From: Streptomyces sp. 846.5
GTDB taxonomy: Bacteria > Actinomycetota > Actinomycetes > Streptomycetales > Streptomycetaceae
Assembly (NCBI RefSeq): GCF_004365705.1
Contig: NZ_SOBN01000003.1
Span: 62,001 to 126,000, forward strand
Direction: 5' to 3'
Length of the DNA: 64,000 nt
Below, piece after piece: positions 24,391 through 41,079 of this stretch (positions within the stretch are counted from its first letter, which is position 1; each line of letters begins with the position of its first letter). A program made the position numbers and the translations under genes. Under the pieces are notes generated by a model. The model was not told the origin of the DNA. It did no database searches and saw only the letters and a list, made by a program, of their open reading frames with translations.

Positions 24391-24959
24391 TGCGCCAGCC
24401 TTTCCCGTGCCTCCATCAGCGCAAAGCCCAGCAGGTTCAGCCCGCGCCAGCGCGCCGGGTTGCCGGCCCGCTCGTCGTCGGCTGCGAGCCCGATCCCCCA
24501 GACCCGGTCCACCGGGCTGGCCTCGACCAGCACCCGCCCGCGCGTGCCCAGCAGGTACTCGCGCAGCGCCGGATCCTGCCCGAACTTGGCCACATTGCCG
24601 TCCACCACCAGCTCGAACCGCGCCGCCGTCCAGGCCGCATCGTCGAAGCCGCGCACCAGCCGGCCCCGCTTCTTCGCCTCGGCGGGCGTCCGCGCGGCCA
24701 GGATCCCCGGCACCGACTCCTCGTCCCCGAACAGCCGTGCCTTGCCGGCCATCATCCAGTGCTCCGCCGAGGCATACGCCACGCCGTCCACCTCGAACAC
24801 CGACGGCCACCACTGGCTCAGCGCCCCGGCCCCCACCGACCCGTCCTTCTGCGCCTGATGCCCCCAGAACATCAGCTTGTTGTGGCTGGGGGCCGCTGAC
24901 CTGCACTGATCCCGCGAAAGGGGGTCTGACGTGCGGAAATGCCGCTCAGTAGTTGCCAT
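24387..24959 (-). CDS. NADAR (YbiA-like) protein with element-encoded N-terminus
   Basis: From L29 on, the sequence is a NADAR domain (LMFWGHQAQKDGSVG, LSQWWPSVFEVDGVAYASAEHWMMAGKA, LRGFDD-like and AKFGQDP segments). NADAR proteins hydrolyse ADP-ribosyl or ribosylamine adducts, in riboflavin-damage control (YbiA) or in removing ADP-ribose from guanine in DNA. The first 28 codons come from the integrated element. The native 30-codon start, ending A-R-P-K-W, lies at 40993-41079 beyond the right end. Translation could alternatively begin at the ATG at 24872 inside the attachment site. No clear ribosome-binding site precedes 24959. The gene is split by integration, and whether it stays functional is uncertain. 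Confidence 0.85.
   Translation of the reverse strand: MATTERHFRTSDPLSRDQCRSAAPSHNKLMFWGHQAQKDGSVGAGALSQWWPSVFEVDGVAYASAEHWMMAGKARLFGDEESVPGILAARTPAEAKKRGRLVRGFDDAAWTAARFELVVDGNVAKFGQDPALREYLLGTRGRVLVEASPVDRVWGIGLAADDERAGNPARWRGLNLLGFALMEARERLAQ
24859..24876 (+). repeat. attL, 18-bp direct repeat at left end of element
   Basis: TGCCCCCAGAACATCAGC is identical to 40973-40990. On the minus strand it encodes L-M-F-W-G of the NADAR protein, a conserved motif, so reading frame is kept on both sides of the crossover. Flanking bases differ at the two ends, as expected for attL and attR. Confidence 0.92.
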
Positions 24960-25083
24960 AGTTTCGCACCGTTATTCGTTGGCTTGTGCCCGCGTTGTGC
25001 CCTGGTGTGCCCGGGGTCCTCCGGCCGTCTCGCTCTCTCCCGAGCTGGACGGCGCCGCCCGGTGGTTGCACACCGAACGGCGC

Positions 25084-25112
25084 CTTGATCCGCACCCCTT
25101 CCGATCAAGGAG
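25084..25112 (+). promoter_or_regulatory. Inverted repeat over the ribosome-binding site of the first left-module gene
   Basis: CTTGATC (25084-25090) and GATCAAG (25103-25109) can pair across 12 bases, and the right arm runs into AAGGAG (25107-25112), the ribosome-binding site of the gene at 25121. It could be an operator or a translation-controlling hairpin. Confidence 0.45.
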
Positions 25113-25120
25113 TCAGACCC

Positions 25121-25663
25121 GTGCAGAACCCTATCGATCCCGCGCAGGCCGACGGCATCACCGCGGTTGCCCCGGAGTCGCTTGTGCTGTCCGCGCACAC
25201 CGTGAGCATCCTCGCCCGTCACGTAGCCGGACGACTCGGCAACGACCAGGCGGCGCGGGCCTTCCGCGCCACACTGGAGGACGCCGCGGCGTTGGCGGAG
25301 GCGTGGGTGTCGGCGCAACTCGACGCCCTCGCCACGCCGCCGCACGCCTCGGCGCGAGCGACCACGCCCCCGTTGGTTGCGGCCTCTGCGCAGCCTGGCG
25401 CAACACCGGCCGTACCGCCCGCAACCGGCGCGCAACTCCTGACCGCAACAGCTGCGGTCCTCGCCGCAACAACCCAGCTCAGCGAGGGCGCGACCGCGCG
25501 CGACATCTCACAGCATGTCGCAGCGCAACACCAACTCGACGTCTCCCCGGGCACCGTCCGCGCGATCCTGTCCCGCCACAACCGCGAGCAGGCGCAACAG
25601 GCAGCGCAACAGCCCGCAACACTCCCCTTCGGCTTCGGCCAGACCGGAGGCACGCGGCCGTGA
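25121..25663 (+). CDS. HTH-like protein of the element's left module
   Basis: The GTG start is eight bases after AAGGAG. The 180-residue protein has an Ala-rich helical N-terminal half and a long Ala/Pro/Thr-rich linker. Its C-terminal ~45-residue segment (ATARDISQHVAAQHQLDVSPGTVRAILSRHNREQ) reads as a winged or simple helix-turn-helix. No family is recognised. Its stop overlaps the start of the next gene (GTGA), so it heads a tightly coupled operon of membrane proteins and may regulate it or bind element DNA. Confidence 0.65.
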   Translation: MQNPIDPAQADGITAVAPESLVLSAHTVSILARHVAGRLGNDQAARAFRATLEDAAALAEAWVSAQLDALATPPHASARATTPPLVAASAQPGATPAVPPATGAQLLTATAAVLAATTQLSEGATARDISQHVAAQHQLDVSPGTVRAILSRHNREQAQQAAQQPATLPFGFGQTGGTRP

Positions 25664-25836
25664 CAACCACCGCATTCGAGGCCTGGTGCGCCGTCGGCGT
25701 CGTCACCCTGCTCACCTCCAGCGGCCTCCAGCTGCACCCGCGCGACCACATCCGAGCCCTGCACCGCCTCGACTGGATCATCGGCGTCTGGCTGTTCACC
25801 GGCCTGCTCTCACTCGGCCTCGGAGGCCAGCTGTGA
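25660..25836 (+). CDS. Small membrane protein (58 aa), left module
   Basis: Start GTG and stop TGA overlap both neighbours (GTGA at each side). The 58 residues include one or two hydrophobic stretches (about residues 8-23 and 39-55) around a charged R-D-H-I-R-A-L-H-R segment. A membrane hairpin is likely. No family is recognised. Confidence 0.6.
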   Translation: MTTTAFEAWCAVGVVTLLTSSGLQLHPRDHIRALHRLDWIIGVWLFTGLLSLGLGGQL

Positions 25837-25991
25837 TCCTCGACCTGATCTACGCCTGGATCGCCGCCGGCACCGCCCTCGGCGCCGTCGCCCTCGCCGC
25901 ACCCCGCCGCATCAGCACACCCACGAGCTGGGTGTTCGTCGGCTGGCTCTACGTCGGCATCATCGGCCTGCTGGTCTGGGAGGTCCACTGA
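25833..25991 (+). CDS. Small membrane protein (52 aa), left module
   Basis: The GTG start overlaps the preceding stop, and the TGA overlaps the next ATG (TGATG). The 52 residues comprise two hydrophobic segments (about 3-22 and 32-49) separated by A-P-R-R-I-S-T-P, predicting a two-helix membrane protein. No family is recognised. The unbroken chain of overlaps argues that it is translated. Confidence 0.6.
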   Translation: MILDLIYAWIAAGTALGAVALAAPRRISTPTSWVFVGWLYVGIIGLLVWEVH

Positions 25992-26533
25992 TGGGCGCGC
26001 ACTACGTCACCGCCGGCTCCGTCCTGGTCGGCCTGCTCCTGGTCGGCGCCCGCGGCATCACCTGGTACCGCAAGCACGGCCGGAAGACCGGCGGCAAGGG
26101 CGGTGAAGGTGGCGGCAAGCGCAAGCTCGGCCCTCTCGGACCGTTCCTGTGGACCATGACCCTCGGCACCCTGTCCGCGCTCGCCGCTGGCGGCATCCTC
26201 GGCAAGACCGCCCAGGGCGTAGCCACCAGCAGCAACAAGTTCGGCGACCAGCTGCTGAGCACCATCGCCGGAGCCAACAGCCCCAGTGTCACCCGCCCCG
26301 GCATCCAGATGCTCGGCCCCGGCGGCTCCGTGCTGCTGATCGTGCTGCTGTTCTGCTGCGTGGCCTGGTTCTGGATGCACGGCTGGCGCATCCGAGTCGA
26401 GATGGTCGGCGGCTACATCGCAGGCGTCACCCTCGGCCCAACGGCCGGCCTCGCCGGCATCGCAGGCGTCGTCCTGGCGCCGATCTTCAACTACAGCGGC
26501 AACTACATCACCGGGCTGGGCTTCCATGGCTGA
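25991..26533 (+). CDS. Multispanning membrane protein (180 aa), left module
   Basis: The protein has an N-terminal hydrophobic helix, then a highly basic glycine/lysine segment (KHGRKTGGKGGEGGGKRK, residues ~28-46). Hydrophobic stretches follow near 52-72, 112-128 and 137-165, predicting three or four membrane passes. The basic loop could contact DNA or lipid head groups. The layout resembles the hydrophobic spread (Spd) proteins of actinomycete plasmids only in style; no TraB-like translocase accompanies it. It overlaps the next gene by eight bases. Confidence 0.65.
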   Translation: MGAHYVTAGSVLVGLLLVGARGITWYRKHGRKTGGKGGEGGGKRKLGPLGPFLWTMTLGTLSALAAGGILGKTAQGVATSSNKFGDQLLSTIAGANSPSVTRPGIQMLGPGGSVLLIVLLFCCVAWFWMHGWRIRVEMVGGYIAGVTLGPTAGLAGIAGVVLAPIFNYSGNYITGLGFHG

Positions 26534-27131
26534 GCAGCAGAACGACACCGTGGCAGCCTGGCAGCAGACCGTCACCCGCGCCGTGATCGGCACCGGGCAG
26601 ATCGGCAGCCGCCGCCTGCACTGGATCTGGGAGACCGAGGACGGTCGTCGTCGCCTCGGTCGGATCATCGCCCGTGGCCTCGGCAGCGCCTTCGTGGTGT
26701 ACGCGATCGTCCGGCTCGGCACGTACTGGCCGTGGGTCGGCGTGGTCGAGCTGATCGCCCTGCTCTGGTACGGCCACGCGAAGGCCCGGCTGGAGGAGAC
26801 GCCCGAGTTCGCCGAGGACGAGCTGGAGACGGAGCTCACCGCAGAGGAGCAGGTGCTCGGCATCATCGTCGGCATCATCGGCGACGCCTCCGGCATCCAC
26901 CTCGACACCCTGCTGCCGATCCTCCAGCAGGAACCCGGCTGCGAGGAGATGACGCGCGATGATCTGCGCCGCGTCCTGGACGCCGTGGGCTGCCCCATCC
27001 GGCGTGCCCTCCGCGTCGGCACCCGCACCGGCATCGCCGGGGTCCACCGCGACGACGCCCAGGCCGCGCTCGATGCGCTGTACGAGGCGACCGAGCCACT
27101 CCCCCGACCGGTCGCCCCTTCCGAGCTGTAG
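26526..27131 (+). CDS. Membrane-anchored protein with C-terminal winged-helix-like domain, left module
   Basis: The 201-residue protein has a soluble basic N-terminus, two close hydrophobic segments (about residues 57-82), an acidic linker (EETPEFAEDELETELTAEEQ), and a C-terminal ~90-residue domain of alternating helices (DDLRRVLDAVGCPIRRALRVG). A Gly-rich turn gives it the look of a winged helix. No family is recognised. It ends the overlapping operon and is followed by phased TGTAGG repeats. Confidence 0.6.
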   Translation: MAEQQNDTVAAWQQTVTRAVIGTGQIGSRRLHWIWETEDGRRRLGRIIARGLGSAFVVYAIVRLGTYWPWVGVVELIALLWYGHAKARLEETPEFAEDELETELTAEEQVLGIIVGIIGDASGIHLDTLLPILQQEPGCEEMTRDDLRRVLDAVGCPIRRALRVGTRTGIAGVHRDDAQAALDALYEATEPLPRPVAPSEL

Positions 27132-27223: not shown

Positions 27224-27230
27224 AGCAGCC

Positions 27231-27341
27231 ATGCTGACCACTCTCCGCCGCCTCACCGCGGCCCTTCGCCAGTACCTCACCTGTGCGGTCTGTGGCTTCT
27301 GGTACGACCCCGACAAGGGGCACGCCTGCGTCCCCTGCTAA
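27231..27341 (+). CDS. 36-aa zinc-ribbon-like miniprotein
   Basis: AGGAG lies five bases before the ATG. The 36 residues have a basic N-terminal helix (LRRLTAALRQYL) and two C-x-x-C knuckles, CAVC and CVPC, separated by G-F-W-Y-D-P-D-K-G-H-A, a compact zinc-ribbon pattern. Its stop overlaps by four bases the stop of the convergent DUF6907 gene. It may bind nucleic acid, possibly the repeat array just upstream, but that is inference. Confidence 0.6.
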   Translation: MLTTLRRLTAALRQYLTCAVCGFWYDPDKGHACVPC

Positions 27342-27673
27342 CGCTGTGCCGCTACCGCCTGCGCCAGCTGCTGGCCGAGCTGGCGTAGGCGTGCGGCGTG
27401 GGCTTCGAGGCCGGCCGCCAAATTCTCGAGTTCGTCGGTACCCATCTCGGGGAAGTCCGCGCCGAGGTCGACGGCGGCGTAGACGTCCCGGCGCCCCACC
27501 ACAGCGTTTGGGTACTGGCACAGGAAGGCCTCCAGGACGGAGACCGTGCCGCGGCTGGTGGGCACGTCCAGAGTGATCGATGCCGACTGGTGGCCCTGGT
27601 CTACCGGGTCTTCCTCGGCGCCGGGGTGGATGCCGCCGCACCAGGCCGGGCACGGGCCGAGCACATCGACCAT
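27338..27673 (-). CDS. DUF6907-type protein (111 aa)
   Basis: The protein carries the pattern C-P-A-W-C near the N-terminus followed by an acidic D-P-V-D and Q-G-H-Q-S motif, as in the DUF6907 family common in actinobacterial mobile elements. The second half is helical (GTDELENLAAGLEAHAARLRQLGQQL). The function of the family is unknown. It ends the leftward gene block of the element and has a distant paralogue at 37912-38505. Confidence 0.65.
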   Translation of the reverse strand: MVDVLGPCPAWCGGIHPGAEEDPVDQGHQSASITLDVPTSRGTVSVLEAFLCQYPNAVVGRRDVYAAVDLGADFPEMGTDELENLAAGLEAHAARLRQLGQQLAQAVAAQR

Positions 27674-27803
27674 GGCGCCTCCAGGGCGTGGTGTGGGGGC
27701 CGTCCGGGGCGCCTGGGGGGCATGGATTTCCCCGGACGGCCGTAGTGCCCCGCCCGGCTGCGGCACCACCGCATGGGCCAGCCGGGCGGGAGTCGTGCGG
27801 GCC

Positions 27804-28097
27804 TTACTCCTGCGCCCTCTCACGAGTCGCCTGGAGCATCCGCGCAGCCGCACCCTTCGCGATGAGCGCGCCGACCTCCCGCGCGACTGCCGGCCGGTCC
27901 ACCTGCGCCTGTAGGCGCCACCCCATGCAGCGGCGGCAGTAGCGCGACACCGGGACGTTCGGATAGCCCTCGTCCTCCACCTCCGTCACGCGCCTGTCGG
28001 CCGGCTGGTAGGCGGCCGGGCAGGAGTGGCAGCTGCCGTCGATCCACGTCAGCGCGTTCAGCTGGTCAAGCACTTCAGGAGACAGGTACCTGCTCAT
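27804..28097 (-). CDS. Small protein with CxxC pairs (97 aa)
   Basis: The ATG at 28097 overlaps the stop of the upstream gene (ATGA). The 97 residues contain CHSC and CRRC, spaced about 32 residues apart, suggesting a zinc knuckle or ribbon, and a basic helical C-terminus. No family is recognised. It belongs to a run of small element genes that are probably translated from one transcript. Confidence 0.55.
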   Translation of the reverse strand: MSRYLSPEVLDQLNALTWIDGSCHSCPAAYQPADRRVTEVEDEGYPNVPVSRYCRRCMGWRLQAQVDRPAVAREVGALIAKGAAARMLQATRERAQE

Positions 28098-28315
28098 GAC
28101 TCGACCGCCAGGTGCTCGGGGCAGGCGACGACGGGCCAGCCGTAGCGGCCTCCGTCGCCGTCGCCGGTGTAGACGTGGCCGGCGGGCAGCAGCGGGCCGG
28201 TGGTGTTGCCGCAGTTGAAGCACGCCAGGGCGTGCAGTCGGGTCAGGGTGTTGTCGTCCACGGGCAGCAGCCGAACCTCAGGCTGCGGCGCCGCCAGAGC
28301 CGCGAGTTCCGCCAT
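28094..28315 (-). CDS. Small protein with zinc-ribbon-like cysteines (73 aa)
   Basis: The protein holds CFNC in the middle and C-P-E-H near the C-terminus, a possible treble-clef or zinc-ribbon arrangement. It is coupled to the next gene by an ATGA overlap. A GTG at 28324 would extend it by three residues; neither start has a strong ribosome-binding site. Function unknown. Confidence 0.5.
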   Translation of the reverse strand: MAELAALAAPQPEVRLLPVDDNTLTRLHALACFNCGNTTGPLLPAGHVYTGDGDGGRYGWPVVACPEHLAVES

Positions 28316-28402: not shown

Positions 28403-29245
28403 TCACTGGCCTTCGAGAGCCGCTCTGGCTCGGGCGAGAAGATGTTGCGCGAGGTGGTCAAAGACAGCTGTCTCGTTGAGCCACTCCCACGCCCTGGCGT
28501 ACAGCGCCACGTCAGCCGCGTCATCGAGCCACATCTCGGCGTTGATCGTCTCCACGATGACGAGCCGCTCGTCATAGATCCAGAAGCCGTGTGCCGGAGT
28601 GCGCTTCAACCGGGTTGCGAGCGGGATGATGCCGATCTCCACCGAGTCCATGCCCACGAGCCCGGTGAGCCGGTCCAGTTGCGGGATCATCACCGCGGGC
28701 GGCCCGACCTGTGCGTACAGCGCGGCCTCCCAGAGCACGAACCGGAAGCGGCGGCCGGCCTCGTACAGCGACTCCTGACGCTTCATCCGGGCCCGCACTG
28801 CCTCTTCGACGTCACGGGGCGAGTCGGCGAAGTCAGCTGCCATGGTGAGCAGAGCGCGGGCGTAGGCGCTGGTCTGCAACAGGCCGGGGATGCGGCTGGA
28901 CTCGAAGGCACGGATCACGCTGGTCCGCTGGCTCTCTTCAATAGCCGCGTCCTGCCGTGCTCGGTGGCCCCCGGCCAACTGGCGCCGCCACGACCGGTAG
29001 GCCGTCTCTGCGCCAAGGAGCCGAGCCTTCAGCTCGGTGGCGGCCGAGGGGTTACCTGCGGCTTCGGCCCAGGCGGTGAGGTCAGCGACGGTGGCGGTCT
29101 GCTTGCCGGACTCCAGCTTGCTGACCTTGCTCTGTGGCCATCCCATCCGTTCGGCGAACTCGCGGCCGGTATGGCCGCCCTCGGCGCGCAGCTCGCGGAG
29201 CCGGACGCCGAGGGCGATTCTCGCCTGTTGGAAATCGGTCGTCAC
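28403..29245 (-). CDS. XRE-family regulator with DUF5753 domain
   Basis: The 280-residue protein has an N-terminal XRE helix-turn-helix (LRELRAEGGHTGREFAERMGWPQSKVSKLESGKQTATVADL) and a C-terminal DUF5753 domain (FESSRIPGLLQTSAYARALL through FGFWIYDE-like and LYARAWEWLNETAVF segments). In streptomycetes such proteins are paired with a small DUF397 or DUF6879 partner in developmental or toxin-antitoxin-like regulation. Here the DUF6879 gene lies directly upstream with a GTGA overlap. Inside a mobile element this pair may act in stability or lysogeny control. Confidence 0.85.
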   Translation of the reverse strand: MTTDFQQARIALGVRLRELRAEGGHTGREFAERMGWPQSKVSKLESGKQTATVADLTAWAEAAGNPSAATELKARLLGAETAYRSWRRQLAGGHRARQDAAIEESQRTSVIRAFESSRIPGLLQTSAYARALLTMAADFADSPRDVEEAVRARMKRQESLYEAGRRFRFVLWEAALYAQVGPPAVMIPQLDRLTGLVGMDSVEIGIIPLATRLKRTPAHGFWIYDERLVIVETINAEMWLDDAADVALYARAWEWLNETAVFDHLAQHLLARARAALEGQ

Positions 29246-29772
29246 ATGGCTGACGGTACCGCCGTGTTGAACTCCCTGGCAGGGACTGCGAAGTGCTGAG
29301 CTGCATCACGCACCTGGCAGGCTCGGAGTACCTCACTGGCGTCCTCGATCAGCACTACGCCGAGCGTGCGGTCGGTGTCCTCATCGAAGACCAGGCGCAC
29401 CAGGGTCGCGGAGTCGAACAGCCAGAAGTCCTCCCGTGGTAGGTGCAGCTGGTCCGCCCGGGTGCGCGGGAGCATGCGGATGTCCTCCGGGCTGTCGAGT
29501 GCAGTGGCCAGCAGGAAGCGCTGATTGTCGGTCAGCGGGTCGTCCACGACGCGCACGCGCCCGAAGGTCTTCCCTTGGCTGAGCTGGGCGCGGATGTTGA
29601 CCTGCCATGGGTGGCTGGGGTCGGCCGGCACGCCGCCGGTCGCCAGGAACCGCGCGAGTCGCTCGCCGGTCAGGTCCGACGCGTATCCGCGCCTGCTCTC
29701 CAGCCTCCAAGCGGTGTGCTGGAAGTCCTCGAAGAGGTGGCCGATGTCAGCGAACGGGATGATCTCGACCAC
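29242..29772 (-). CDS. DUF6879 family protein
   Basis: The 176-residue protein fits DUF6879 by its opening (IPFADIGHLFEDFQHTAWRLESRRGY), the R-A-D-Q-L-H-L-P-R-E-D-F-W-L-F-D core and the R-L-V-F-D-E-D segment. DUF6879 proteins are small partners of XRE/DUF5753 regulators in actinobacteria. The coupling to that regulator by a GTGA overlap supports a functional pair. The biochemical role is not established. Confidence 0.75.
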   Translation of the reverse strand: MVEIIPFADIGHLFEDFQHTAWRLESRRGYASDLTGERLARFLATGGVPADPSHPWQVNIRAQLSQGKTFGRVRVVDDPLTDNQRFLLATALDSPEDIRMLPRTRADQLHLPREDFWLFDSATLVRLVFDEDTDRTLGVVLIEDASEVLRACQVRDAAQHFAVPAREFNTAVPSAM

Positions 29773-29773
29773 G

Positions 29774-29974
29774 TCACGCCCTCGGCGCGAAGCGGGTGAG
29801 CAAGTCGCGGGGGATGACGACGAAGGTCTCCGAGTCCTTGACGTCGCGCAGCTGCTCCAGCGCTTCGGGGTCGGTGAGGCGGTCGCCCTGGACGACGATG
29901 CGGCCGTCTTCGGTCTCGTACAGCGTGGGGCAGTCGCCGTGCTCGGACGTGGTGCCGAGGAACGTGAGCTTCAT
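29774..29974 (-). CDS. Small conserved-type protein (66 aa)
   Basis: Begins MKLTFLGTTSEHGDCPTLYETEDG and continues with an acidic V-Q-G-D-R-L-T-D-P segment and I-P-R-D-L-L-T-R-F. Proteins of this look occur beside DUF6879 genes in streptomycetes, which together with the 1-base gap to that gene suggests a three-gene operon with the XRE regulator. The ATG has AAAGG about eight bases upstream, partly within a palindrome. Function unknown. Confidence 0.65.
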   Translation of the reverse strand: MKLTFLGTTSEHGDCPTLYETEDGRIVVQGDRLTDPEALEQLRDVKDSETFVVIPRDLLTRFAPRA

Positions 29975-30084: not shown

Positions 30085-33000
30085 TCAGCCCCTTCCGTGT
30101 ACGCCGAGGGCCGCCTGGACGTTGCCGCCCAGGTTCCTGATCGTCTTGCGGATGGGGTCAAGCACGGCCTCGCCCATGTCCTTGCCGCCGATGGACACGT
30201 GCACGTGGATCGGTGCCGCAGAGGCGGCCGAGCCCCCGGACCGGGCGACATTGCCGCCCACCGAGCCCGAGCGGCCGAGTAGACCCGGCGTCAGACCCGG
30301 GAGGGAGTCTGTGAGGCCAGCGAGTTGCCGGTGCAGGTTGGGCTTCTCGTTGTCGATGCCGGCCATGAAGCTGCGTAGCACCAGGGCGCCGTTGGCGGTC
30401 AGGATCTTGGCATCCACGGCTGGCGGACCCTTCCAGCTCGGCAGCAGAGACGTCAGGTTCGACAGGGTGTTCTTGACGTCATCGAACCCCTGCTCGATCC
30501 CGTGAATGAAGCCCTTGACGATGGAGCCGCCAGCCCCCAGCAGCAGGCTGCCGAGGTCGCCGAGGGCGTGCAGCAGCATGGACGGCAGGTTGCGCATCCA
30601 GGTGATCGCGGGCTGCATCCACGCGACGATTCGCGCTGGGAGGGCGACGAAGATGCTGGCCAGGAAGGAGATCCAGCCGGACACGGCCTGCCGGACGTAG
30701 CCGAGCGCCTGCGAGAAGTGGCCTTGCAGGAGCGCGGTCAGGGCCATAATCGCGGGAATGATCACGCCCGTGATGTATTTGGCCAGGGTGCCGGACAGGA
30801 TCGTCGCCAGCTTGCCGATGATGCCGATGACCGGTGTGATCACCGGGACCAGTACGGAAAGGCCGCGGCCGATCAGCACGGCCAGCTGCTGAATCAGCGG
30901 GGCCACGGCCACGAGCAGTGCGGCGAACGTCCCGGCCAGGATGCCCAGACTCGGGGACAGGGCGACGACCAGCTGCGTCAGGATCGGCAGCACTGCCCCG
31001 GTCAGGGTGGTGAACACCGTCATCAGGGGCGCGATGATGGACGGCAGCGCAGAGAGGATCGGCGCCAGCGTCGTCATGATCGCCTGGCCAAGAGCCAGGA
31101 CCAGCGGAGTGATCTGCCGCCAGTACGTGCCCATCGCCGCGAGGATCGGCGTCAGGATCGGGCCCAGCAGGGCGATCAGCGTGCCCGCCATGGGCAGCAG
31201 CGGCGCCCACACGCCGAGCAGTTGGCCGAAGGACTGGGCCGCTGTCAGGAGCACCGGGCCAAGGGCTGTGATGATCGGTGCGAGGCCCTGGCCGAGGGCG
31301 GCGATGACTGCCTGCACGGGCGGACCGAGGGCGGTCAGCACGGGGGCGATGACGCCGAGGGCGGACATGAGCAGCGGAGCCGCCTGCGTGGCCAGCGAGT
31401 TCATGACGCCGAACAAGGCCTTAAGCGCCGATTGGACGGCCGGGCTGGCGAAGGCCTTCGCCAGGGTGCTGCTGATCGTCTTGAGGACGTCCAGGAAGCT
31501 GCCGCCGCTTGCCGAGGTGGCCTTGAAGACGGACATCAGGATCGAGCCGACGTTCGCGCCGACCGAGATCAGTTCCTTGATCAGGGACACGGCGTCGCTG
31601 ATCGCGGTCTGGAGACCACCCGAGGCGAACGCCTTGCCCAGGGATGCGCCGATCGAGGCCGCGCCGGATGCCACCGAGGCGGTGAGCTTCTGGAACGTCG
31701 GCCCGGCCGCGGCAGCCAGCTGCCCGAAGGCCGTGACGACCAGGCCGGGGATGCCCACCAGGTTGTGCAGGCCGGCCGAAGCGCTGCCCATCGCCTGACC
31801 CAGGACACCCGAACTGGCCAGGTTTCGGGCAGCGCTGAGGACGCCGAGGCCCATGGCGTTCATGGCCCCGGCGGAGGAGACGAGGTTGGCGCGCAGGACG
31901 GGCAGTACGGACGTGGCTGTCGAGGCGAGGGCCCCCGCCAGGCCGAGGAACAGGCGCTGCTGCACGTCCAGCTGGAGGCTGTGCCAGGCCGGTTTGAGGG
32001 CGATGACCTCGCGCACGAATGCTTGTGCGGATGGGGCCAGCTTCGACATCGCCGACGCAAGGGCATTCGCGGCCCCGGCGCTGCTGACCATGGACTGCTT
32101 GAGTGCTTCCTGGGCCTTCTGGATCGACTCCAGGCCCTGGGCTGCGGTGCGGGCCATGGCCTGCTGTGCGAGCTGCACAGCCTGGACCTGGTCCCGGATG
32201 TTCTGCTGGCTCTTGGCGACCTGGGACTGTGCGGAGACCACTGCGGCCGAGCCGTTCACCCCGGCCTTGTTCGCCGCCGCGGTGTCCGACTGGAGCCGCT
32301 GGACCGTGATGCCCTGCTCTTTCAGGTGCTGCTGGGCTTGGTCGTAGGCGAGCTGGTCCTTCTGGATCTGCTCGGCGGTGACCGCGCCGCCCTTCATCCG
32401 GTCGGCGTTGAGCTGGGCGAGCGCGTCCTGGACGTCCAGGACGGCCTGACGCTGGGCCTGCTGGGCGTCGATCAGGTTGTTGTTCTGGTCCTGGAGATCG
32501 CGCGCGGCCTGCACACGGGCGGCGTTGAGGGCCTTCTGCGCTTGCGTCGCCTGGATCTGGGCATCGGTCAGGGCGCGTTCGGCGCTGGTGACCGTGCGCG
32601 CCGCGGCGGCGTTGGCGACCGCGGCCTGCGCGGTGGCGTCCCGGACGGCGCGCTGGGCGTCCGCGAGCTTCTGGGCGGAGTTGGCCGCAGCTCCAGCGGA
32701 ACTGGCGGTGGTGGAGAAGGCAGCCTTGAGTGCCGAGCCGATACCAGCCGAGCCGATCTTGAGGGCAGCCCCGGCCTGAGCGACCGCGAGCAGGGCCGTC
32801 GCCGCGACGGAGGCCGCGGGCACCATGTTGACCAGCGCACCGATCAACCCCGCCACGGCGGGCACGATGGAGCCGAAGGAGCCGGCCATCATGCCCGCCT
32901 GCGAGGCCACCCCGCCGATGGTGCTGGCGAGCTGCCCCATGCCGGTTGCAGCCTGGCTCGCTCCCCCGCTCTCGCCGAGCGCATCCTCCTCATGACGGAC

Positions 33001-34562: not shown

Positions 34563-34576
34563 GGTCGCCCGGCCCG

Positions 34577-34858
34577 TCAGTGGTAGTTGCGGGCGTTGGG
34601 GGCGAGGCCGTCCTGCATGGCGACCGCGGGCTGCACCACGTGCCTGGCCTGCGCGCGCAGGCTGGTGACGGCGGCCTGGTGCTCGGGCGGCGTGCCGTCG
34701 GGGGCGTCGATGACCGTGTAGCCGGCCGTCTCGAAGTAGGCGAGCTGTGCGGGGTCGGCGGTGTACGCGATGCCGTCGACCCACCACACGGTGTCGGGGT
34801 TGTCAGGCTGGCCGGGGCCATGGACCTTGGCCCCGGCCGGGGCGAGGATCTGCTTCAT
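34577..34858 (-). CDS. Small element protein (93 aa)
   Basis: ATG with GGAG eight bases upstream. The protein contains a hydrophobic-aromatic core (PDTVWWVDGIAYTADPAQLAYFETAGYTVID) suggestive of a small beta-rich domain, and a helical C-terminus. It overlaps the HTH gene upstream by 56 bases. Function unknown. Confidence 0.5.
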   Translation of the reverse strand: MKQILAPAGAKVHGPGQPDNPDTVWWVDGIAYTADPAQLAYFETAGYTVIDAPDGTPPEHQAAVTSLRAQARHVVQPAVAMQDGLAPNARNYH

Positions 34859-35285
34859 GGACTGCTCCGAGTCGGTAGCCGTCCAGGGACGCCGCGTTGA
34901 TGAGCCAGGCCCATCCCGCGCGGCGACCGCTGACACGGCCGGTGGCGACCAGGCGGCGCACGTGGCGGGGTGTGCACTCCAGCAGCGCGGCAGCCTGATC
35001 AACGGTCAGTTCCACACTGGGCTGAGCTGATCCACTACTTCCGAACTCGGACATTGTGAGGAGAGCGTCCTGCCCGTCCAGGTACCGCACGTTGGCGTCG
35101 TGCAGGGCGAACAGCAGGCTGCGGGCGGCAGGTGACAGCTCGCCCCCATCGGCCCGTACGCGCACCGTCAGGCCGAGTTCCACCAGTCGCAGCACGTCCC
35201 CGGCAACGGCCGGCGGGACCAGCACGGCGCCGTCGGGCCGCATCAGCGACCCGAGAGCGACCGGCGGGCGACCGGTGGTTGTCAC
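34803..35285 (-). CDS. Helix-turn-helix (excisionase-like) DNA-binding protein (160 aa)
   Basis: The C-terminal half has a MerR/Xis-type winged helix, V-D-Q-A-A-A-L-L-E-C-T-P-R-H-V-R-R-L-V-A-T-G-R, followed by a W-A-W-L-I wing and D-G-Y. The N-terminal half has a strand-rich segment ending L-S-P-A-A-R-S-L-L-F-A-L. The GTG start overlaps the upstream stop (GTGA). It is probably an element regulator and is distinct from the 71-aa Xis-like protein at 38635. Confidence 0.65.
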   Translation of the reverse strand: MTTTGRPPVALGSLMRPDGAVLVPPAVAGDVLRLVELGLTVRVRADGGELSPAARSLLFALHDANVRYLDGQDALLTMSEFGSSGSAQPSVELTVDQAAALLECTPRHVRRLVATGRVSGRRAGWAWLINAASLDGYRLGAVHEADPRPGRGQGPWPRPA

Positions 35286-35548
35286 TCGGTCGCTCCGTCG
35301 GCCATCGCCTGGAGGACGAGCCGCCGCACCGCCGCGGCATACTGCATGCGCATGTCTGCCGCGCCCTCCCAGTCGAGCGGGATCGTGTTGTCGAGGATGT
35401 GGCGGACCAGGGCGCCGATGATGTGGCCGAGTTCCTCGAAGCCGTACTCGTCCAGGAGCGGCCCGACGTCGGTGATCCGGCCTTCGGCGCAGGTGGCCAG
35501 CAGGATCAGGGCCCGGGCATCCAGCTCGGCGGCAGTGAAGCCAGCCAT
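35282..35548 (-). CDS. Small helical element protein (88 aa)
   Basis: Soluble, Ala/Leu-rich and mainly helical (AAELDARALILLATCAEGRITDVGPLL, then EELGHIIGALVRHILDN). The ATG overlaps the preceding stop (TGATG) and its own stop overlaps the HTH gene start. No family is recognised. Confidence 0.55.
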   Translation of the reverse strand: MAGFTAAELDARALILLATCAEGRITDVGPLLDEYGFEELGHIIGALVRHILDNTIPLDWEGAADMRMQYAAAVRRLVLQAMADGATE

Positions 35549-35916
35549 CAGGCACGCTCCTGCGCCGCGAGCATCCTGACCGCAGAGGCGTTGCCCGCAG
35601 CGGCGGACCTGCGCAGCACCTTGTTCAGCTTCGCCTGCTCCTTGGAGAGCATCGCCCGGTTGCGCAGTGAGTTGTCGGCCGCCCGATCGGCCTCGACCGC
35701 CAGCCGGTCCATCTGCTCGGCCGCGGCCTGGACGATCGGTGCGATCTTCGCTGCGGTCTCCGGGTCGCGCAGGCCCTCGCGGGCGAGCCTGGCGAAGGCC
35801 TTCCGCATGCGCATGTTGGACCGGTCGAGCTGGGCACGCCCGGGGTAGCCCTTGTGACTTCGGGGGCTGAGCTGCTGGGGCAGCACGGTGGGTTCGATGC
35901 TGGCGGGGTCGATCAT
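35548..35916 (-). CDS. Helical basic element protein (122 aa), first gene of the tape-measure operon
   Basis: A basic, strongly helical protein (NMRMRKAFARLAREGL, then a long AAEQMDRLAVEADRAADNSLRNRAMLSKEQAKLNKVL coil). It is the first of seven genes that run, mostly with overlaps, to the tape-measure gene. A 12-bp palindrome lies 17 bases upstream of its start. Function unknown. Confidence 0.55.
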   Translation of the reverse strand: MIDPASIEPTVLPQQLSPRSHKGYPGRAQLDRSNMRMRKAFARLAREGLRDPETAAKIAPIVQAAAEQMDRLAVEADRAADNSLRNRAMLSKEQAKLNKVLRRSAAAGNASAVRMLAAQERA

Positions 35917-36105: not shown

Positions 36106-36876
36106 TCAGCGAGGCTTCTGACGGCGGCGGTCGTTGCCCTTGAGGGTGATGCGCGTGCTCATCTCGGCAAGGCGGGAGGAGACTCGTTCCCCGAGTCGCT
36201 CGCGCAGTACGTCCCCGGGGACGTTGCTGGTGAAGATCGTGGGGAGGCACTGCTCGTACCGGTGGTTGATCAGCCGGTAGAGGATTTCCTCGGTCCACTC
36301 CGTGTCCTTGGAGGCGCCGAGGTCGTCCAGCAGCAGCAGCGGGGTACTGGCGTACTCGCGGTACTTGGCTTCGCTGTCGCCGCCGGCGCTGGGGCGAAGA
36401 GCGGCATAGAGGTCCGCCTCGGTGGTGGCCTTCCACCTGGGTGCGCGCCGGGCCCCGGTGCTCATGACGGCGACGATGACGGCCTGGATGGTGGAGTAGG
36501 CCCGGTGGGTCTTGCCGGTACCAGTGGCGCCGAGGATGAGTTGTGAGCGCGTGTTCCGGGGATCCTTGGCGACCTGCTGCGCCCACTCGACTACATCGGC
36601 GTCGGTCACGCTGACGTTGTGGTACCTGGGGGGCACCTCGTGGGTGAACTGGGCGATGGCTTGGAGGGTTCGCTGCCTGACGGCCTGCTCGTGTGCGTAG
36701 CGGACGAACTCGGCCTCGGCGGGCAGCAGCTGGTCATAGCGGAGTTCGCCCTGGATGTAGTCGTCGATGCGGATGCGGGCTTCGACGTCGCCGGGGTAGT
36801 CGGCGGCGTGGATGTCGATTGAGATATGGGCCTGCGGGTTGGCGCTGAGTTCGGCCTCGGGCCTCTGGATGGTCAT
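36106..36876 (-). CDS. DnaC/IstB-like ATP-binding helicase loader
   Basis: The 256-residue protein has Walker A G116-A-T-G-T-G-K-T123 and Walker B L-L-L-L-D-D-L-G-A (D184-D185), then the sensor-type N-H-R-Y and T-S-N-V segments and an arginine-rich R-L-A-E-M-S-T-R motif. This is typical of phage and bacterial helicase loaders. Its start lies one base after the stop of the initiator gene, so initiator and loader form a replication module like lambda O/P or DnaD/DnaC types. It probably recruits the host DnaB helicase. Confidence 0.85.
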   Translation of the reverse strand: MTIQRPEAELSANPQAHISIDIHAADYPGDVEARIRIDDYIQGELRYDQLLPAEAEFVRYAHEQAVRQRTLQAIAQFTHEVPPRYHNVSVTDADVVEWAQQVAKDPRNTRSQLILGATGTGKTHRAYSTIQAVIVAVMSTGARRAPRWKATTEADLYAALRPSAGGDSEAKYREYASTPLLLLDDLGASKDTEWTEEILYRLINHRYEQCLPTIFTSNVPGDVLRERLGERVSSRLAEMSTRITLKGNDRRRQKPR

Positions 36877-36877
36877 G

Positions 36878-37807
36878 TCAGATGTCCTTTTCGTAGGCGG
36901 ATTGATCGATGGGATTGCGGTATGCCTGGTGGCTACTGGACGGCCGGGAAGGCTGGAGTTCGTCCTCGTAGCTGCCCTTGCGGAGCCAGGTCGCGGGATA
37001 CGGCACGTAGCCGGACTGTCGACCTTCCGCTGTCCAGTGCTCGCGGTGCTTGATCGCTGCGGTGACGAGCTGCCCGCTGTCGACGCCGGCCTTGATGGCG
37101 GAGGCGTACGCCTTCCGCGCGTCAGCCTTGGCGGCCTTGCGGGGGTACTCCGCCCAGAAGGCGTCGAAGCCGTCCGAGACAGGTGCCGGTGCAGCAGCGC
37201 GAGGTGTCTCTCGCTCCGCCTGCGGCGGGGCAGCGAAGAGTGATGGCTCTTCTGGTGGTTCACCTGATGGTTGGGCTGGTGGTTCCGGCGCATCTGACGG
37301 CGTTACAGAACGCTGTTCAACGGCGTTACGTATCTCGTTAGACGGCGTTACTTCGGCGTCTGACGGCGTTACACCGTTACCCGTAACGCTGTTCAACGGC
37401 GTTTCAGTAACGCCATCCGACGGCGTTACCTGCCTGGCCCGGTGCCTACGGACGCGCTCGGCTGTAGCGGCGCGCCGCTTCTCCGTTTCATCGCTCAGCT
37501 GCTCCCAGTCAGCGGCCGGGCGCTTGCGCCTCAACGAGAGCGTCCAGTTCGTGCAGGAGTGTTTCGTCCCCATCGCGGTGATGAGCCCCGCCGCCTCCAG
37601 TCGTCCAAGGGCGTCCTGGACGGTGCGACGGTTGAAGCCGGTCTTGTATTGGATGCGCGGAACTGACGGGTACGAGTTGGTGCCGTCCACATGCGCGTGC
37701 TCGGCCAGAGCTGACAGCACGAAGCGCGCCGTGGTGTCGGGCCTGCCCTTCTCCGTGAGCAGCATGGGAGCGTCGTCCATGGCCCACTTCACGGCTTCGA
37801 CACTCAC
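36878..37807 (-). CDS. Phage-type replication initiator with internal iterons
   Basis: The 309-residue protein has an N-terminal winged helix (ARFVLSALAEHAHVDGTNSYPSVPRIQYKTGFNRRTVQDALGRLEAAGLI), a repetitive central linker with repeated V-T-P-S-D-G/A/N units (~125-180), and a C-terminal DnaD-like domain (FWAEYPRKAAKADARKAYASAIKAG and YVPYPATWLRKG). This is the layout of replisome organisers. The linker DNA carries CGGCGTTAC iterons, so the gene probably contains the origin it binds. It is followed at once by the loader gene. Confidence 0.82.
   Translation of the reverse strand: MSVEAVKWAMDDAPMLLTEKGRPDTTARFVLSALAEHAHVDGTNSYPSVPRIQYKTGFNRRTVQDALGRLEAAGLITAMGTKHSCTNWTLSLRRKRPAADWEQLSDETEKRRAATAERVRRHRARQVTPSDGVTETPLNSVTGNGVTPSDAEVTPSNEIRNAVEQRSVTPSDAPEPPAQPSGEPPEEPSLFAAPPQAERETPRAAAPAPVSDGFDAFWAEYPRKAAKADARKAYASAIKAGVDSGQLVTAAIKHREHWTAEGRQSGYVPYPATWLRKGSYEDELQPSRPSSSHQAYRNPIDQSAYEKDI
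37298..37429. repeat. Iteron cluster (candidate replication origin) inside the initiator gene
   Basis: Perfect CGGCGTTAC copies start at 37298, 37321, 37343, 37364 and 37421, most preceded by GA or AA. A near copy is at 37397, and inverted copies are at 37382-37388 and 37407-37414. Spacings of 21-24 bases equal two helical turns. Iterons inside the initiator gene are the arrangement of lambdoid origins. Confidence 0.82.
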
Positions 37808-37911: not shown

Positions 37912-38505
37912 CTACGCCTCGGCGGCGAGTTGGGCGCGCAGCTGGTGCAGCACCTGGAGCTGCTGCTGAAAGTCGCCGATGAACTGGTCGAGCGCGGAGA
38001 GGTCGAACTCGTGGCCCTCACCGAGGTACTCCAGGACGGCCTTCGGCTCGGAGCCCCAGCTGCCGTAGGGCTCCTGCTGGATGCGGCCGGAGATGAGGAC
38101 CTCGGTCATGCCGTCGGCGTTCGTGACGGTCACCTTGTGGGTGTCGCCCTGGTGGGTGATGTCGAGCGGGTGCATCGGGGCGTCCGCGTCGTGGTCGTGG
38201 GTGCAGAAGGACGCGCGGCACGGGACGGTGATCGATGTGCCGCCCCAGACCTTGATCTTGCAGACGCGGACGCGGGGGTTGGCGGCGATCTCGGCGGCTG
38301 CCTGCTGCCGGACCTCCCAGGTGTTGGCGATGCGCTTTGCCTCGGCGGCCTGCCGCTCGGCGTCGACCTCGGCAAGCAGGTCGTCCAGCACTCGCGCGGT
38401 GACCTGTGGCCGGCGGGTGGGCTCGGCAAGGGCGCGACGCAGCCCCTCGTTCATGTCGGGGTCGCTGTCGGTGGCGATCACGTTGAGGGTGGTCTTAAGC
38501 TGCAC
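37912..38505 (-). CDS. DUF6907-related element protein (197 aa)
   Basis: The GTG at 38505 has AAGGAG seven bases upstream. The N-terminal half is charged and helical (NEGLRRALAEPTRRPQVTARVLDDLLAEVDAERQAAE). The second half has a C-x4-C pair with H-D-H-D-A-D-A-P-M-H-P-L-D and H-Q-G-D, the signature I associate with DUF6907, followed by a helical tail. Its function is unknown. It precedes the replication genes and so belongs to the early region. Confidence 0.6.
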   Translation of the reverse strand: MQLKTTLNVIATDSDPDMNEGLRRALAEPTRRPQVTARVLDDLLAEVDAERQAAEAKRIANTWEVRQQAAAEIAANPRVRVCKIKVWGGTSITVPCRASFCTHDHDADAPMHPLDITHQGDTHKVTVTNADGMTEVLISGRIQQEPYGSWGSEPKAVLEYLGEGHEFDLSALDQFIGDFQQQLQVLHQLRAQLAAEA

Positions 38506-38520
38506 GGGAAGCTCCTTTCG

Positions 38521-38556: not shown

Positions 38557-38589
38557 TTCGGCTGTTCAGGGATGGATGGCGGGTGCTTC

Positions 38590-38626
38590 GGGCCCCTGCT
38601 CCGGACGGCAATCCAGAGCGGGGCCC
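38590..38626 (-). terminator. Hairpin downstream of the excisionase-like gene
   Basis: GGGCCCC and GCTC (38590-38601) pair with GAGC and GGGGCCC (38616-38626) with small interior mismatches. The hairpin starts about nine bases after the stop of the Xis-like gene, which is read leftward. Confidence 0.45.
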
Positions 38627-38634
38627 CTCTCGTT

Positions 38635-38850
38635 TCAGGCGCTGATGGTTTGCGAGTCGAGCCACCGCTCAACGTCGGCCCAGCGGGCCCGCAGATGGCG
38701 GCCGACCTTGATGAACGTGGGGCCACTGCCCCGGCTGGACCAGGCGTAGACGGTGGCCAGCGGCACGCCGCAGTAGTCAGCGACCTCCTGGGCGGTGGCG
38801 AGCTTGCGCCGCTGTACCGCGCTGACCTGCGGAAGGTTGACACGAGTCAT
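38635..38850 (-). CDS. Excisionase-like helix-turn-helix protein
   Basis: The 71-residue protein is a MerR-like/HTH_17 winged helix: LATAQEVADYCGVPLATVYAWSSRGSGPTFIKVGRHLRARWADVERWLDSQ. This form is typical of Xis recombination directionality factors of actinobacterial elements. It is divergent from the XRE-integrase pair across 147 bases that must hold promoters and operators for both directions. It may double as an early regulator. Confidence 0.8.
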   Translation of the reverse strand: MTRVNLPQVSAVQRRKLATAQEVADYCGVPLATVYAWSSRGSGPTFIKVGRHLRARWADVERWLDSQTISA

Positions 38851-38997
38851 GCGCGATCTTCCCTCGTCTCGTTTTCCGGATCGATACGAATTCGAGCCGC
38901 AGCATGAGTCTGCACCCGATGGATTGTCGAGTCAATACGCAAGCTGGTGGGGACTGGTGCGTTGTGAGAACGCGCGTCGTATGTCACTCTGTTGGGC

Positions 38998-39651
38998 ATG
39001 ACGGATGAGCAGGAAGTCCCGCCGACTGTCGGGAATGTGGTCGGTGAGAATCTGCGCCGCATCCGCTTGGCGCTGCGCCTGACTCAGGGCAAGGCGGCTG
39101 ACCGGCTGGCGAGAGCGGGTCTCAACTGGAAGCGGACGCAGCTCTCTGACTTGGAGAGCGGCCGGCGGGAGAGTCTTGACGTCGGCAGCCTCTTCGTTCT
39201 TGCTGCAGCCTTCGAAGTTCAGATGCCCGCACTCTTTGAGGGTGATGGGGACGTCCTACTGACTCCGCGTGCCGATTTTCGCGAGTACGGAGCAACAGCC
39301 ACCCGGGCGCAACTGCGCAGTTGGGTTGCCGAGGTCGAACCTGACACCGTGGGGACGGGGACCCAGACCGCCAAGGCGGCCCTTGACCACCTTCGCTGGC
39401 ACGGGAGATCGATCCCCATTGCCGCCGATCAGGTTGTGGCCGAGAAGCTTGGCGTTGATGTTCAGCGCGTCGTCGAAGCGGCCGAGCAGATTTGGCACCG
39501 CGGTCTGACTGAGCAGCGCGATCTGCTGGTGGCCGAGCTGGGCGACCTTGATGTTGGCGAGCGTCAGGCCAAGCAGGGCCACATCACCAGGCAACTCACG
39601 GGCGTGCTCCTGAAGTGGATGGGCGCCGAGGGGGAGGCGGAGGATGGCTGA
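38998..39651 (+). CDS. XRE-family helix-turn-helix regulator, coupled to integrase
   Basis: The 217-residue protein has an N-terminal XRE domain (GENLRRIRLALRLTQGKAADRLARAGLNWKRTQLSDLESGRRESLDVGSLFVLAAAF) and a C-terminal helical part with WHRGLTEQRDLLVAEL. Its stop overlaps the integrase start by eight bases. It is the most likely repressor of the element's leftward genes. Its DNA is visibly lower in GC than the host genes on either side, a sign of foreign origin. Confidence 0.8.
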   Translation: MTDEQEVPPTVGNVVGENLRRIRLALRLTQGKAADRLARAGLNWKRTQLSDLESGRRESLDVGSLFVLAAAFEVQMPALFEGDGDVLLTPRADFREYGATATRAQLRSWVAEVEPDTVGTGTQTAKAALDHLRWHGRSIPIAADQVVAEKLGVDVQRVVEAAEQIWHRGLTEQRDLLVAELGDLDVGERQAKQGHITRQLTGVLLKWMGAEGEAEDG

Positions 39652-40951
39652 CGTCTACGACCGGTGGCACCTCTCGCGGCCGAAGAAGGACGCGAAGCCC
39701 TGTACCGAGCACTCCAGCCGGACCCGCATGCTGGTTGCCAGCGCCGAGCACGGGGCGGGGAAGCGCTGGCAGGTCCGCTACCGCGACCACGACGGCAAGC
39801 AGTGCAAGGAGAACTTCGAGAAGCGCAGCCAGGCCGATGCGCGCGCCGCCGAGGTCGAGACAGATCTCAACCGCGGCACGTACATCGACCCGAAGGCCGG
39901 CAAGGTCACGCTGAGGGAGTTCGCCGAGGACTGGCTAGCGGCGCGCACCTCGGACCCGTCGACCATCGCCGTGCAGGCTCGACACCTGCGGCTGCACATC
40001 CTGCCCGTCCTGGGTTCCAGGCCGCTGCGCGCACTGCGCCCGTCGACTGTGCAGGCGTGGCTCTCCGGGCTGGTGGCCACGGGGATGCAGCCGACCTACG
40101 CGAACGGCATCCTCGGAACCCTGTCGTCCATCCTCGGGGCGGCCGTTGACGACGAAGCGATCAGCAAGAACCCGTGCCGGGCAGCATCGGTCAAGCCACC
40201 GAAGGTCGTCAAGGCGAAGATCGTCCCGTGGACGGTCGAGCGCGTGACCGCAGTCCTGGCCGCACTGCCGGGCCGCTACACCTGCATGGGCATTCTCGCG
40301 GCAGGGTGCGGCCTGCGGCAGGGCGAGATCCTGGGCATCGGACCGGACGACATTGACTTCCTGCGGGGCGTCGTCCACGTCCGGCGGCAGGTGAAGCACG
40401 TCGACTACAAGCGGGTGTTCGCGCTGCCTAAGGGCAAGAAGGTCCGGGAGGTGCCGCTACCGCCCAAGGTCGCCGCCGCCCTGGCCGCGCACATGAAGGC
40501 GTATCCGGCCGTCCGGGTGGTGCTGCCGTGGGCGACGCTGGACGGCGAGCCGACACCGGTGTCTCTGTTCTTCACTACGGTGGAGAGCGCCAACGCGCTG
40601 GACTCCAACAGCTTCAACTCCCGCATCTGGAAGCCCGTGCTCGCCAAGGCCGGCGTCATCCCGACGCCGAAGAAGGGCGAGCGGTACGCTGCGGCCGACG
40701 AGGACGGCATGCACGCGCTGCGGCACCACTTCGCCAGCGTGCTGCTGGACGGCGGCGAAACGATCACAGCCCTGTCCGAGTACCTGGGCCACCACGATCC
40801 GGCGTTCACGCTGCGGACCTACGCCCACATGATGCCGACAAGCGAAGGACGAACCAAGCGGGTCATCGACGCCGCGCTCGGTGCGTCCATCGACGCCCTA
40901 ATTTCGGGGCCAAGTGCCCCGGATGTGCCCTCCCTGGCCTTGTCCACCTAG
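39644..40951 (+). CDS. int: Tyrosine-type site-specific integrase
   Basis: The 435-residue protein has an N-terminal arm-binding region, a core-binding SAM-like domain (TLREFAEDWLAARTSDPSTIAVQARHLRLHILPVLG) and a catalytic domain with R225 (CGLRQGE), H357-A-L-R360, H383 (Y-L-G-H-H) and the nucleophile Y393 (RTYAHMM), all intact. It should catalyse integration between attP and the NADAR attB, with the Xis-like protein promoting excision. The gene ends 22 bases before attR, the usual location. Confidence 0.95.
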   Translation: MADVYDRWHLSRPKKDAKPCTEHSSRTRMLVASAEHGAGKRWQVRYRDHDGKQCKENFEKRSQADARAAEVETDLNRGTYIDPKAGKVTLREFAEDWLAARTSDPSTIAVQARHLRLHILPVLGSRPLRALRPSTVQAWLSGLVATGMQPTYANGILGTLSSILGAAVDDEAISKNPCRAASVKPPKVVKAKIVPWTVERVTAVLAALPGRYTCMGILAAGCGLRQGEILGIGPDDIDFLRGVVHVRRQVKHVDYKRVFALPKGKKVREVPLPPKVAAALAAHMKAYPAVRVVLPWATLDGEPTPVSLFFTTVESANALDSNSFNSRIWKPVLAKAGVIPTPKKGERYAAADEDGMHALRHHFASVLLDGGETITALSEYLGHHDPAFTLRTYAHMMPTSEGRTKRVIDAALGASIDALISGPSAPDVPSLALST

Positions 40952-41079
40952 ACATTGCTGGTCAGCGAGTTTTGCCCCCAGAACATCAGCCACTTCGGCC
41001 GCGCTCCCGCCGCCACCAGCCCAGCGAGATCCTCCCGACTGCGCGCCCGCGCCGGGTGCCCCAACTCACTCGTCGTCAT
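40948..41079 (-). pseudogene. Detached 5' end of the NADAR gene
   Basis: From an ATG at 41079 the frame encodes MTTSELGHPARARSREDLAG and then ...GARPKWLMFWG across attR. It then runs into element sequence and stops at 40948 after a further Q-N-S-L-T-S-N-V. The first 30 codons plus the attachment-site codons join exactly in frame to the NADAR body at attL, giving a 192-aa reconstructed protein. After integration only a 43-aa fragment can be made here, from the native promoter. Confidence 0.88.
40973..40990 (+). repeat. attR, 18-bp direct repeat at right end of element
   Basis: TGCCCCCAGAACATCAGC is identical to 24859-24876. To its right the minus strand continues upstream with codons for W-K-P-R-A read backwards, the native start of the NADAR gene. 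Confidence 0.92.

What the first reader, a model, noticed from the sequence alone, without database searches (positions are those of the whole stretch)
24859..40990. 16.1-kb element integrated inside a NADAR gene at an 18-bp coding attachment site
Exact 18-bp direct repeats bound a block with integrase, excisionase-like protein and replication genes. The repeats lie in codons for the L-M-F-W-G motif of a NADAR protein rather than in a tRNA gene. Joining the outer flanks gives a complete, in-frame NADAR gene. The repeats, integrase and split gene are visible directly; recent mobility is inferred.
Basis: partly seen in the sequence, partly recalled or inferred. Interest (0 to 1): 0.85.

Follow-up and report, generated by a model that had tools for sequence, protein, structure and literature searches.

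The report
Integrative element inserted in NADAR gene
A 16-kilobase mobile DNA element has inserted itself, by a site-specific integrase, into the start of a bacterial NADAR gene in a soil actinobacterium; this way of inserting is well known, but the target gene and a lone phage tail-ruler gene inside the element are unusual.

Summary
Exact 18-bp repeats (24859-24876, 40973-40990) bound a 16.1-kb element; the right copy starts 21 bp after the integrase stop codon. Joining the flanks gives an intact 192-aa NADAR gene. All 12 genus relatives with a NADAR hit carry it uninterrupted at this motif; in G005, 2,886 bp of joined flanks align end to end at 92%.

Mobility is supported by a related circle. 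IMG/VR contig L027 (18,414 bp; integrase 73% identical) carries a joined attP whose core spells another NADAR variant (L-H-F-W-G). That variant lies in NADAR genes in 20 of 20 loci read.

Corrections: the repeat's length alone is not beyond chance. The NADAR domain is not split: the element displaces 30 N-terminal codons and adds an in-frame ATG. That frame shows no coding bias and is closed in a third element, so a purpose is doubtful.

Insertion into protein genes is known for similar actinomycete elements. This one has no FtsK/TraB translocase, which its two closest relatives with long sequence have, although many other related stretches also show none. It carries phage-type replication genes and a tape-measure gene without other recognised virion genes. 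Verdict: new variant of a known kind; its transfer route is unknown.

The parts
24387..24876 (-). NADAR gene, C-terminal 162 codons with the complete Pfam NADAR domain
   Evidence: PF08719 E=4.5e-50, profile positions 2-162 of 163
24859..24876 (.). left copy of the 18-bp attachment core
   Evidence: exact repeat
24877..24959 (-). element-encoded in-frame ATG and leader fused to the NADAR domain (28 codons; the last base of codon 28 lies in the core)
   Evidence: open frame; differences not biased by codon position and frame closed in G468, so probably incidental
24895..24901 (.). GCTGACC, inverted match of GGTCAGC (40960-40966) on the other side of the core
   Evidence: checked; similar blocks in L027 and G468
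24986..25012 (.). three GTGCCC repeats 10-11 bp apart, candidate integrase arm sites
   Evidence: checked; two of the blocks align in L027 and G468
25121..27131 (+). five small ORFs (25121-25663, 25660-25836, 25833-25991, 25991-26533, 26526-27131), three with membrane-like segments
   Evidence: composition-based calling; hydropathy; no family of known function
27338..28315 (-). three small ORFs of unknown function
   Evidence: no PHROG match
28403..29245 (-). HTH regulator with DUF5753
   Evidence: PF19054 E=2e-36
29242..29974 (-). DUF6879 protein and a 66-aa ORF
   Evidence: PF21806 E=3e-43; same trio with the HTH gene in the G468 element
30085..33540 (-). tail tape measure protein, 1151 aa
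   Evidence: phrog_6090 E=7e-86; 40% identical over 87% to the phage mu1/6 protein
33550..35916 (-). six small ORFs upstream of the tape-measure gene; 34803-35285 has a second HTH_17
   Evidence: PF12728; 33550-34344 has a homologue shortly before the tape-measure gene of G081, with one ORF between
36106..36876 (-). DnaC-like helicase loader
   Evidence: phrog_50 E=4e-34
36878..37807 (-). phage-type replication initiation protein
   Evidence: phrog_270 E=2e-32; relatives in 29 IMG/VR loci
37912..38505 (-). DUF6907 protein
   Evidence: PF21848 E=5e-20
38635..38850 (-). excisionase-like HTH protein
   Evidence: TIGR01764; 73% identical to the protein in L027
38998..39651 (+). XRE-type HTH regulator
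   Evidence: HTH_3 below the Pfam cut-off; phrog_3 E=2e-6
39644..40951 (+). tyrosine integrase
   Evidence: PF00589; R225, H357, R360, H383, Y393 invariant in 9 aligned sequences, window included
40914..40930 (.). two GTGCCC repeats 11 bp apart, candidate arm sites on the integrase side
   Evidence: checked; also at the L027 integrase end
40960..40966 (.). GGTCAGC, partner of 24895-24901
40973..40990 (.). right copy of the 18-bp attachment core
   Evidence: exact repeat
40973..41079 (-). NADAR gene, displaced 5' end (30 codons plus core)
   Evidence: rejoined frame

Best explanation
A 16.1-kb integrative element recombined into a NADAR gene by integrase-driven attP x attB crossover within an 18-bp core that encodes the conserved L-M-F-W-G motif. 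Shown: the boundaries, the intact empty site in relatives, the integrase with its conserved active-site residues, an excisionase-like gene nearby, and a related element as a closed circle with a joined attP aimed at another NADAR variant. Inferred: that this copy can still excise. Its integrase and excisionase are shared with AICE-like elements, but its body has phage-type replication genes, a tape-measure gene and no FtsK/TraB translocase. It therefore probably moves with help from another conjugative element or a phage, or it no longer transfers between cells.
For: Exact repeat bounding the block; rejoined 192-aa gene; 12 of 12 NADAR-bearing genus relatives uninterrupted; flank alignment to G005; circular relative L027 with joined attP and left-end homology; its core variant lies in NADAR genes in 20 of 20 loci read, from 44 genomes hit among 200 searched; active-site residues invariant; no FtsK homologue in the element; all 24 called ORFs scanned against PHROGs, tape measure the only virion protein.
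Against: No excised circle or transfer of this very element was seen. FtsK is missing from many related stretches too: of 12 stretches whose integrase is 46% or more identical, 3 have a hit (L027, G468, NZ_CP107792) and 9 do not, some of them cut short, so the AICE link of the integrase is weaker than first thought. Short ORFs are called by composition only. L027 is assembled from a metagenome with unknown host.
Confidence: 0.86

Rival explanations
1. The element is a phage satellite whose tape-measure protein alters or competes with the tail-length ruler of an infecting phage, so that its DNA is carried in helper virions or the phage is inhibited.
For: Full-length tape-measure gene without other recognised virion genes; phage-type replication genes; a second, divergent element (G081, L064) has an integrase, a primase-like gene, a homologue of window 33550-34344 and a tape measure 41% identical over 1144 aligned positions.
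Against: No packaging, capsid or terminase gene found. The Streptomyces satellites MulchRoom and MiniFlayer carry terminase and capsid genes (PMC10690885, passages). Only 5 ORFs of L064 were scanned against PHROGs.
Confidence: 0.2
2. It is a decayed prophage that lost its head and most tail genes.
For: Tape-measure homologues mostly sit among phage genes: 14 of 19 loci examined had another structural or lysis gene.
Against: The integrase has under 30% identity to the 15 phage records listed of 712; no neighbour of the tape measure matches a tail family; a partly similar arrangement recurs in G081.
Confidence: 0.3
3. The element regenerates the NADAR gene by supplying a new start, so that the host keeps the enzyme.
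For: In-frame ATG 28 codons before the core in the window and in L027, with the full Pfam domain retained in the window.
Against: In G468 the homologous frame is closed by a stop just before its core; differences fall 11/8/10, 11/10/9 and 7/4/8 by codon position; no sigma-70-like promoter found, though that scan does not cover other promoter types.
Confidence: 0.25
4. The 18-bp repeat is a chance match in GC-rich DNA.
For: Eight exact repeats of 18 bp or more occur in the window.
Against: Position, frame, intact empty site in relatives and the circular relative.
Confidence: 0.01

Closest known systems
AICEs (actinomycete integrative and conjugative elements)
   Same: Integrase, direct repeats at the ends, size within 11.9-36.3 kb, protein-coding sites known (14 of 51; PMC9513070, passages). 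L027, G468 and plasmid NZ_CP107792, with related integrases, have FtsK-like genes
   Different: No FtsK/TraB here, the transfer protein that defines AICEs in that paper; phage-type replication proteins; tape-measure gene
Defective AICEs (DAICE)
   Same: Incomplete elements that may rely on a helper (PMC9513070, passages)
   Different: DAICEs keep traB and lack integrase or replicase; here the reverse, so it is not a DAICE by that definition
Streptomyces satellites MulchRoom and MiniFlayer
   Same: Small mobile genomes in Streptomyces; MulchRoom has a tyrosine integrase (PMC10690885, passages)
   Different: They encode terminase, portal and capsid and lack known primases; MiniFlayer has a tail fibre; the term tape measure does not occur in the paper
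SXT/R391 elements in prfC
   Same: Integration in the 5' end of a conserved coding gene (PMC2786100, passages). That SXT supplies a new start is recalled, not from a call
   Different: About 100-kb conjugative elements; selection for a new start not supported here

Membership tests
Tyrosine-integrase integrative element | integrase with the conserved R-H-R-H-Y residues (set recalled) | tested here: met
Tyrosine-integrase integrative element | direct repeats and intact empty site in relatives | tested here: met
Tyrosine-integrase integrative element | excised circular form of this element | not testable with these tools
   only a relative's circle seen (L027)
AICE | FtsK/TraB-type translocase | tested here: not met
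   no hit with three FtsK queries or their profile; only the DnaC-like Walker A
AICE | integrase and excisionase typical of AICEs | tested here: inconclusive
   3 of 12 stretches with related integrases have FtsK, 9 do not
AICE | replication protein of AICE type (recalled: RepSA, RepAM or Prim-Pol) | tested here: not met
   phage-type initiator and DnaC-like loader instead
DAICE | traB present while integrase or replicase is missing | tested here: not met
   definition in PMC9513070; traB absent, integrase present
Prophage | terminase, portal and capsid genes | tested here: not met
   24 of 24 called ORFs scanned; 34 proteins of three phages matched only by the tape measure
Phage satellite | dependence on, and packaging by, a helper phage | not testable with these tools
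   no experiment possible
NADAR protein | complete PF08719 domain | tested here: met

The most novel reading that the evidence does not exclude
A class of small integrative elements of Streptomycetaceae carries a lone, conserved tape-measure gene and no other virion gene, and uses it to reset or poison the tails of an infecting phage, either to travel in its virions or to defend the host.
Probability: 0.15. Interest if true: 0.75.

Novelty: new variant of a known kind. Interest (0 to 1): 0.42.

Why it matters
It adds NADAR, a guanine de-ADP-ribosylation enzyme family, to the genes used as integration sites, and shows closely related integrases using different coding motifs (NADAR and an HhH-GPD repair gene; a sister clade borders glnA). 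Such integrases are useful for studying how site choice changes. The lone tape-measure gene raises a testable question about parasitism of phage tails.

Tried and rejected
A selected 5'-end regeneration was tested with three left ends and not supported. A protein search with the chimeric N terminus found no candidate. The exact core is in no viral contig and not in L027 with up to 3 mismatches, because L027 has the L-H-F-W-G variant. In 32 related integrase loci with about 1.5 kb of flank, no NADAR match was better than E 0.6.

The direct-repeat search at 12 related loci gave no clear core at 11. L066 showed colinear matches at an offset of about 17,350 bp that include the integrase end, which may mean a neighbouring second element. 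Wider searches for closer integrases found G468 among 392 genomes; 35 further genomes gave only the known G140, and 70 gave none, an empty answer that the tool says shows nothing without a positive control.

Literature: NADAR plus integrase, 83 papers, 20 listed, none on this; NADAR domain, 15; tape measure with satellite, Streptomyces and integrase, 1; tape measure protein with ICE and Streptomyces, 4; AICE with tape measure, 1 off-topic; phage satellite with tape measure, 7. Judged from listings; this does not prove absence from print. In one search three queries (oB, oC, g8) were in wrong frames, so their lack of hits means nothing. The confidence went from 0.88 to 0.86.

Full report
Observation. 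The two 18-bp copies are exact and end abruptly on both sides. The window contains eight exact repeats of at least 18 bp, so the repeat is not remarkable by length alone. It is remarkable by place: the right copy starts 21 bp after the integrase stop codon, and both copies encode the same NADAR codons on the minus strand. Joining the flanks gives a 192-aa NADAR protein in frame.

Empty sites. The genus was searched as 14 genomes including the window's own. Thirteen have the NADAR hit and one (G002) has none at the threshold. All 12 other hits read without interruption through the motif. Reading the sites printed there, 7 of these 12 match the 18-bp core exactly and 5 differ by one base. Eight of the 12 show the neighbouring MFS gene within the 1.5 kb held. 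In G005 the MFS gene, NADAR and the glyoxalase-like gene are in order, and 2,886 bp of joined flanks align end to end at 91.9% with 4 gaps. The genus is inferred to be Streptacidiphilus: contig G008:C148 has the same length, 79,187, as the longest contig listed for P0089, named Streptacidiphilus neutrinimicus.

A circular relative. IMG/VR contig L027 has identical 127-bp ends, so it closes to 18,414 bp. Its integrase and excisionase-like protein are each 73% identical to the window's. After the integrase stop comes CCCCCAGAAGTGCAG, then DNA 77% identical over 112 bp to the window element's left end. That is a joined attP. Read in the NADAR direction the core gives L-H-F-W-G. The search pattern CTGCACTTCTGGGGNCA, which L027 itself matches except at the last base, occurs in 44 of 200 family genomes. 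All 20 loci fetched lie in NADAR-like frames at Y-L-H-F-W-G-H, judged by reading the translation; the other 24 were not read.

Attachment-site anatomy. GTGCCC repeats 10-11 bp apart lie on the integrase side (40914-40930) and on the left side (24986-25012). Inverted GGTCAGC/GCTGACC flank the core. Similar blocks recur in L027 and partly in G468. Their role as integrase binding sites is inferred.

Target choice among related integrases. Its integrase is 76% identical and its left end 76% identical over 116 bp. It sits in an HhH-GPD gene with a 13-bp shared core. A sister clade borders glnA (L071, L072), and a more distant clade borders a gene without a Pfam match. In the tree of 17 integrases, window, L027 and G468 fall in one supported group of nine whose inner order is partly open; the targets of the other six are unknown. 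Outside window, L027 and G468 no core was established.

Is NADAR restored? The Pfam domain lies wholly on the left side, residues 31-188 of the chimeric ORF. An element-encoded ATG precedes it by 28 codons in the window, and the same spacing holds in L027. In G468 the homologous frame stops just before the core. Differences among the three are not concentrated at third codon positions: 11/8/10, 11/10/9 and 7/4/8. No sigma-70-like promoter was found, though that scan does not cover other promoter types. I judge the frame possibly useful but probably incidental. NADAR enzymes reverse guanine ADP-ribosylation (PMC11125620, abstract start and passages). A PADLOC candidate-defence model, PDC-M42C, matches this NADAR.

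Nature of the element. All 24 called ORFs were scanned against PHROGs. Replication, regulation and integration proteins were found, and one virion protein, the tape measure. No FtsK homologue was found with three queries or a profile built from them. L027 and G468 have one, as does the 18.4-kb plasmid NZ_CP107792 with a 46% identical integrase. Against a simple AICE label: of 12 stretches whose integrase is 46% or more identical, only these 3 have FtsK; 9 have none (L066, L067, L069, L170, L171, L172, L175, L176, L177), some of them cut short. Of all 18 stretches in that call, 5 have a hit, 3 of which supplied the profile. The integrase has under 30% identity to the 15 phage records listed of 712 matched. 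By the definitions in PMC9513070 (passages) the element is neither an AICE nor a DAICE, because both have traB.

The tape-measure gene. The tool failed twice on the whole protein, so 411 of 1151 residues were used: 24 of 200 family genomes matched, the window's own included, with 25 places. I fetched 18 regions and examined them with L064, 19 loci in all, using 34 proteins of three phages; 5 places were not examined. Fourteen of 19 show another structural or lysis gene (one of them, L153, lysin only). Five show the tape measure only: L064, L155, L163, L164 and L165. L064 (G081) has an integrase, a primase-like gene, a homologue of window 33550-34344 and a weak match to window 27338-27853. Its other ORFs were not all scanned, and the other four loci were not resolved. 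The recurrence hints at a function but does not show one.

Literature. In one Streptomyces population 36 insertion sites were in tRNA genes, 14 in protein-coding genes and 1 between genes (PMC9513070, passages), so a coding site is ordinary for such elements. I found no paper naming NADAR as a site in the listings. Tail assembly as a target of satellite-borne defence is known from Tai (PMC11364771, passages), where the targets found were the central tail fibre and tail needle, not the tape measure.

Judgement. Integration in NADAR is established as far as sequence can show it. Novelty is moderate: a new target and an unusual gene set within a known kind.

Noticed in passing
30085-33540: Full-length phage tape-measure gene inside an element with no other recognised virion gene; a possible second such element in G081 (L064).
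   Followed up: partly
28403-29974: HTH/DUF5753, DUF6879 and a 66-aa ORF form a module shared with the G468 element (57, 53 and 75% identity) and with G257 (L063; 53, 48 and 46%), where no tape-measure match was seen.
   Followed up: partly
34803-35285: A second excisionase-like HTH_17 protein.
   Followed up: no
L119 15608-15892: In the G468 element the leader frame homologous to that of L027 is closed by a TAG directly before the core, and the HhH-GPD gene is split.
   Followed up: yes
L066 1325-1465 and 18680-18815: Colinear matches at an offset of about 17,350 bp that include the integrase end, and two excisionase-like genes: perhaps two elements side by side.
   Followed up: no
62274-62452: Two near-identical tRNA-Asn (GTT) genes in tandem, starts 105 bp apart.
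   Followed up: no
15802-15864 and 52937-53073: Exact repeats of 38 bp (offset 25) and 37 bp (offset 100) outside the element.
   Followed up: no
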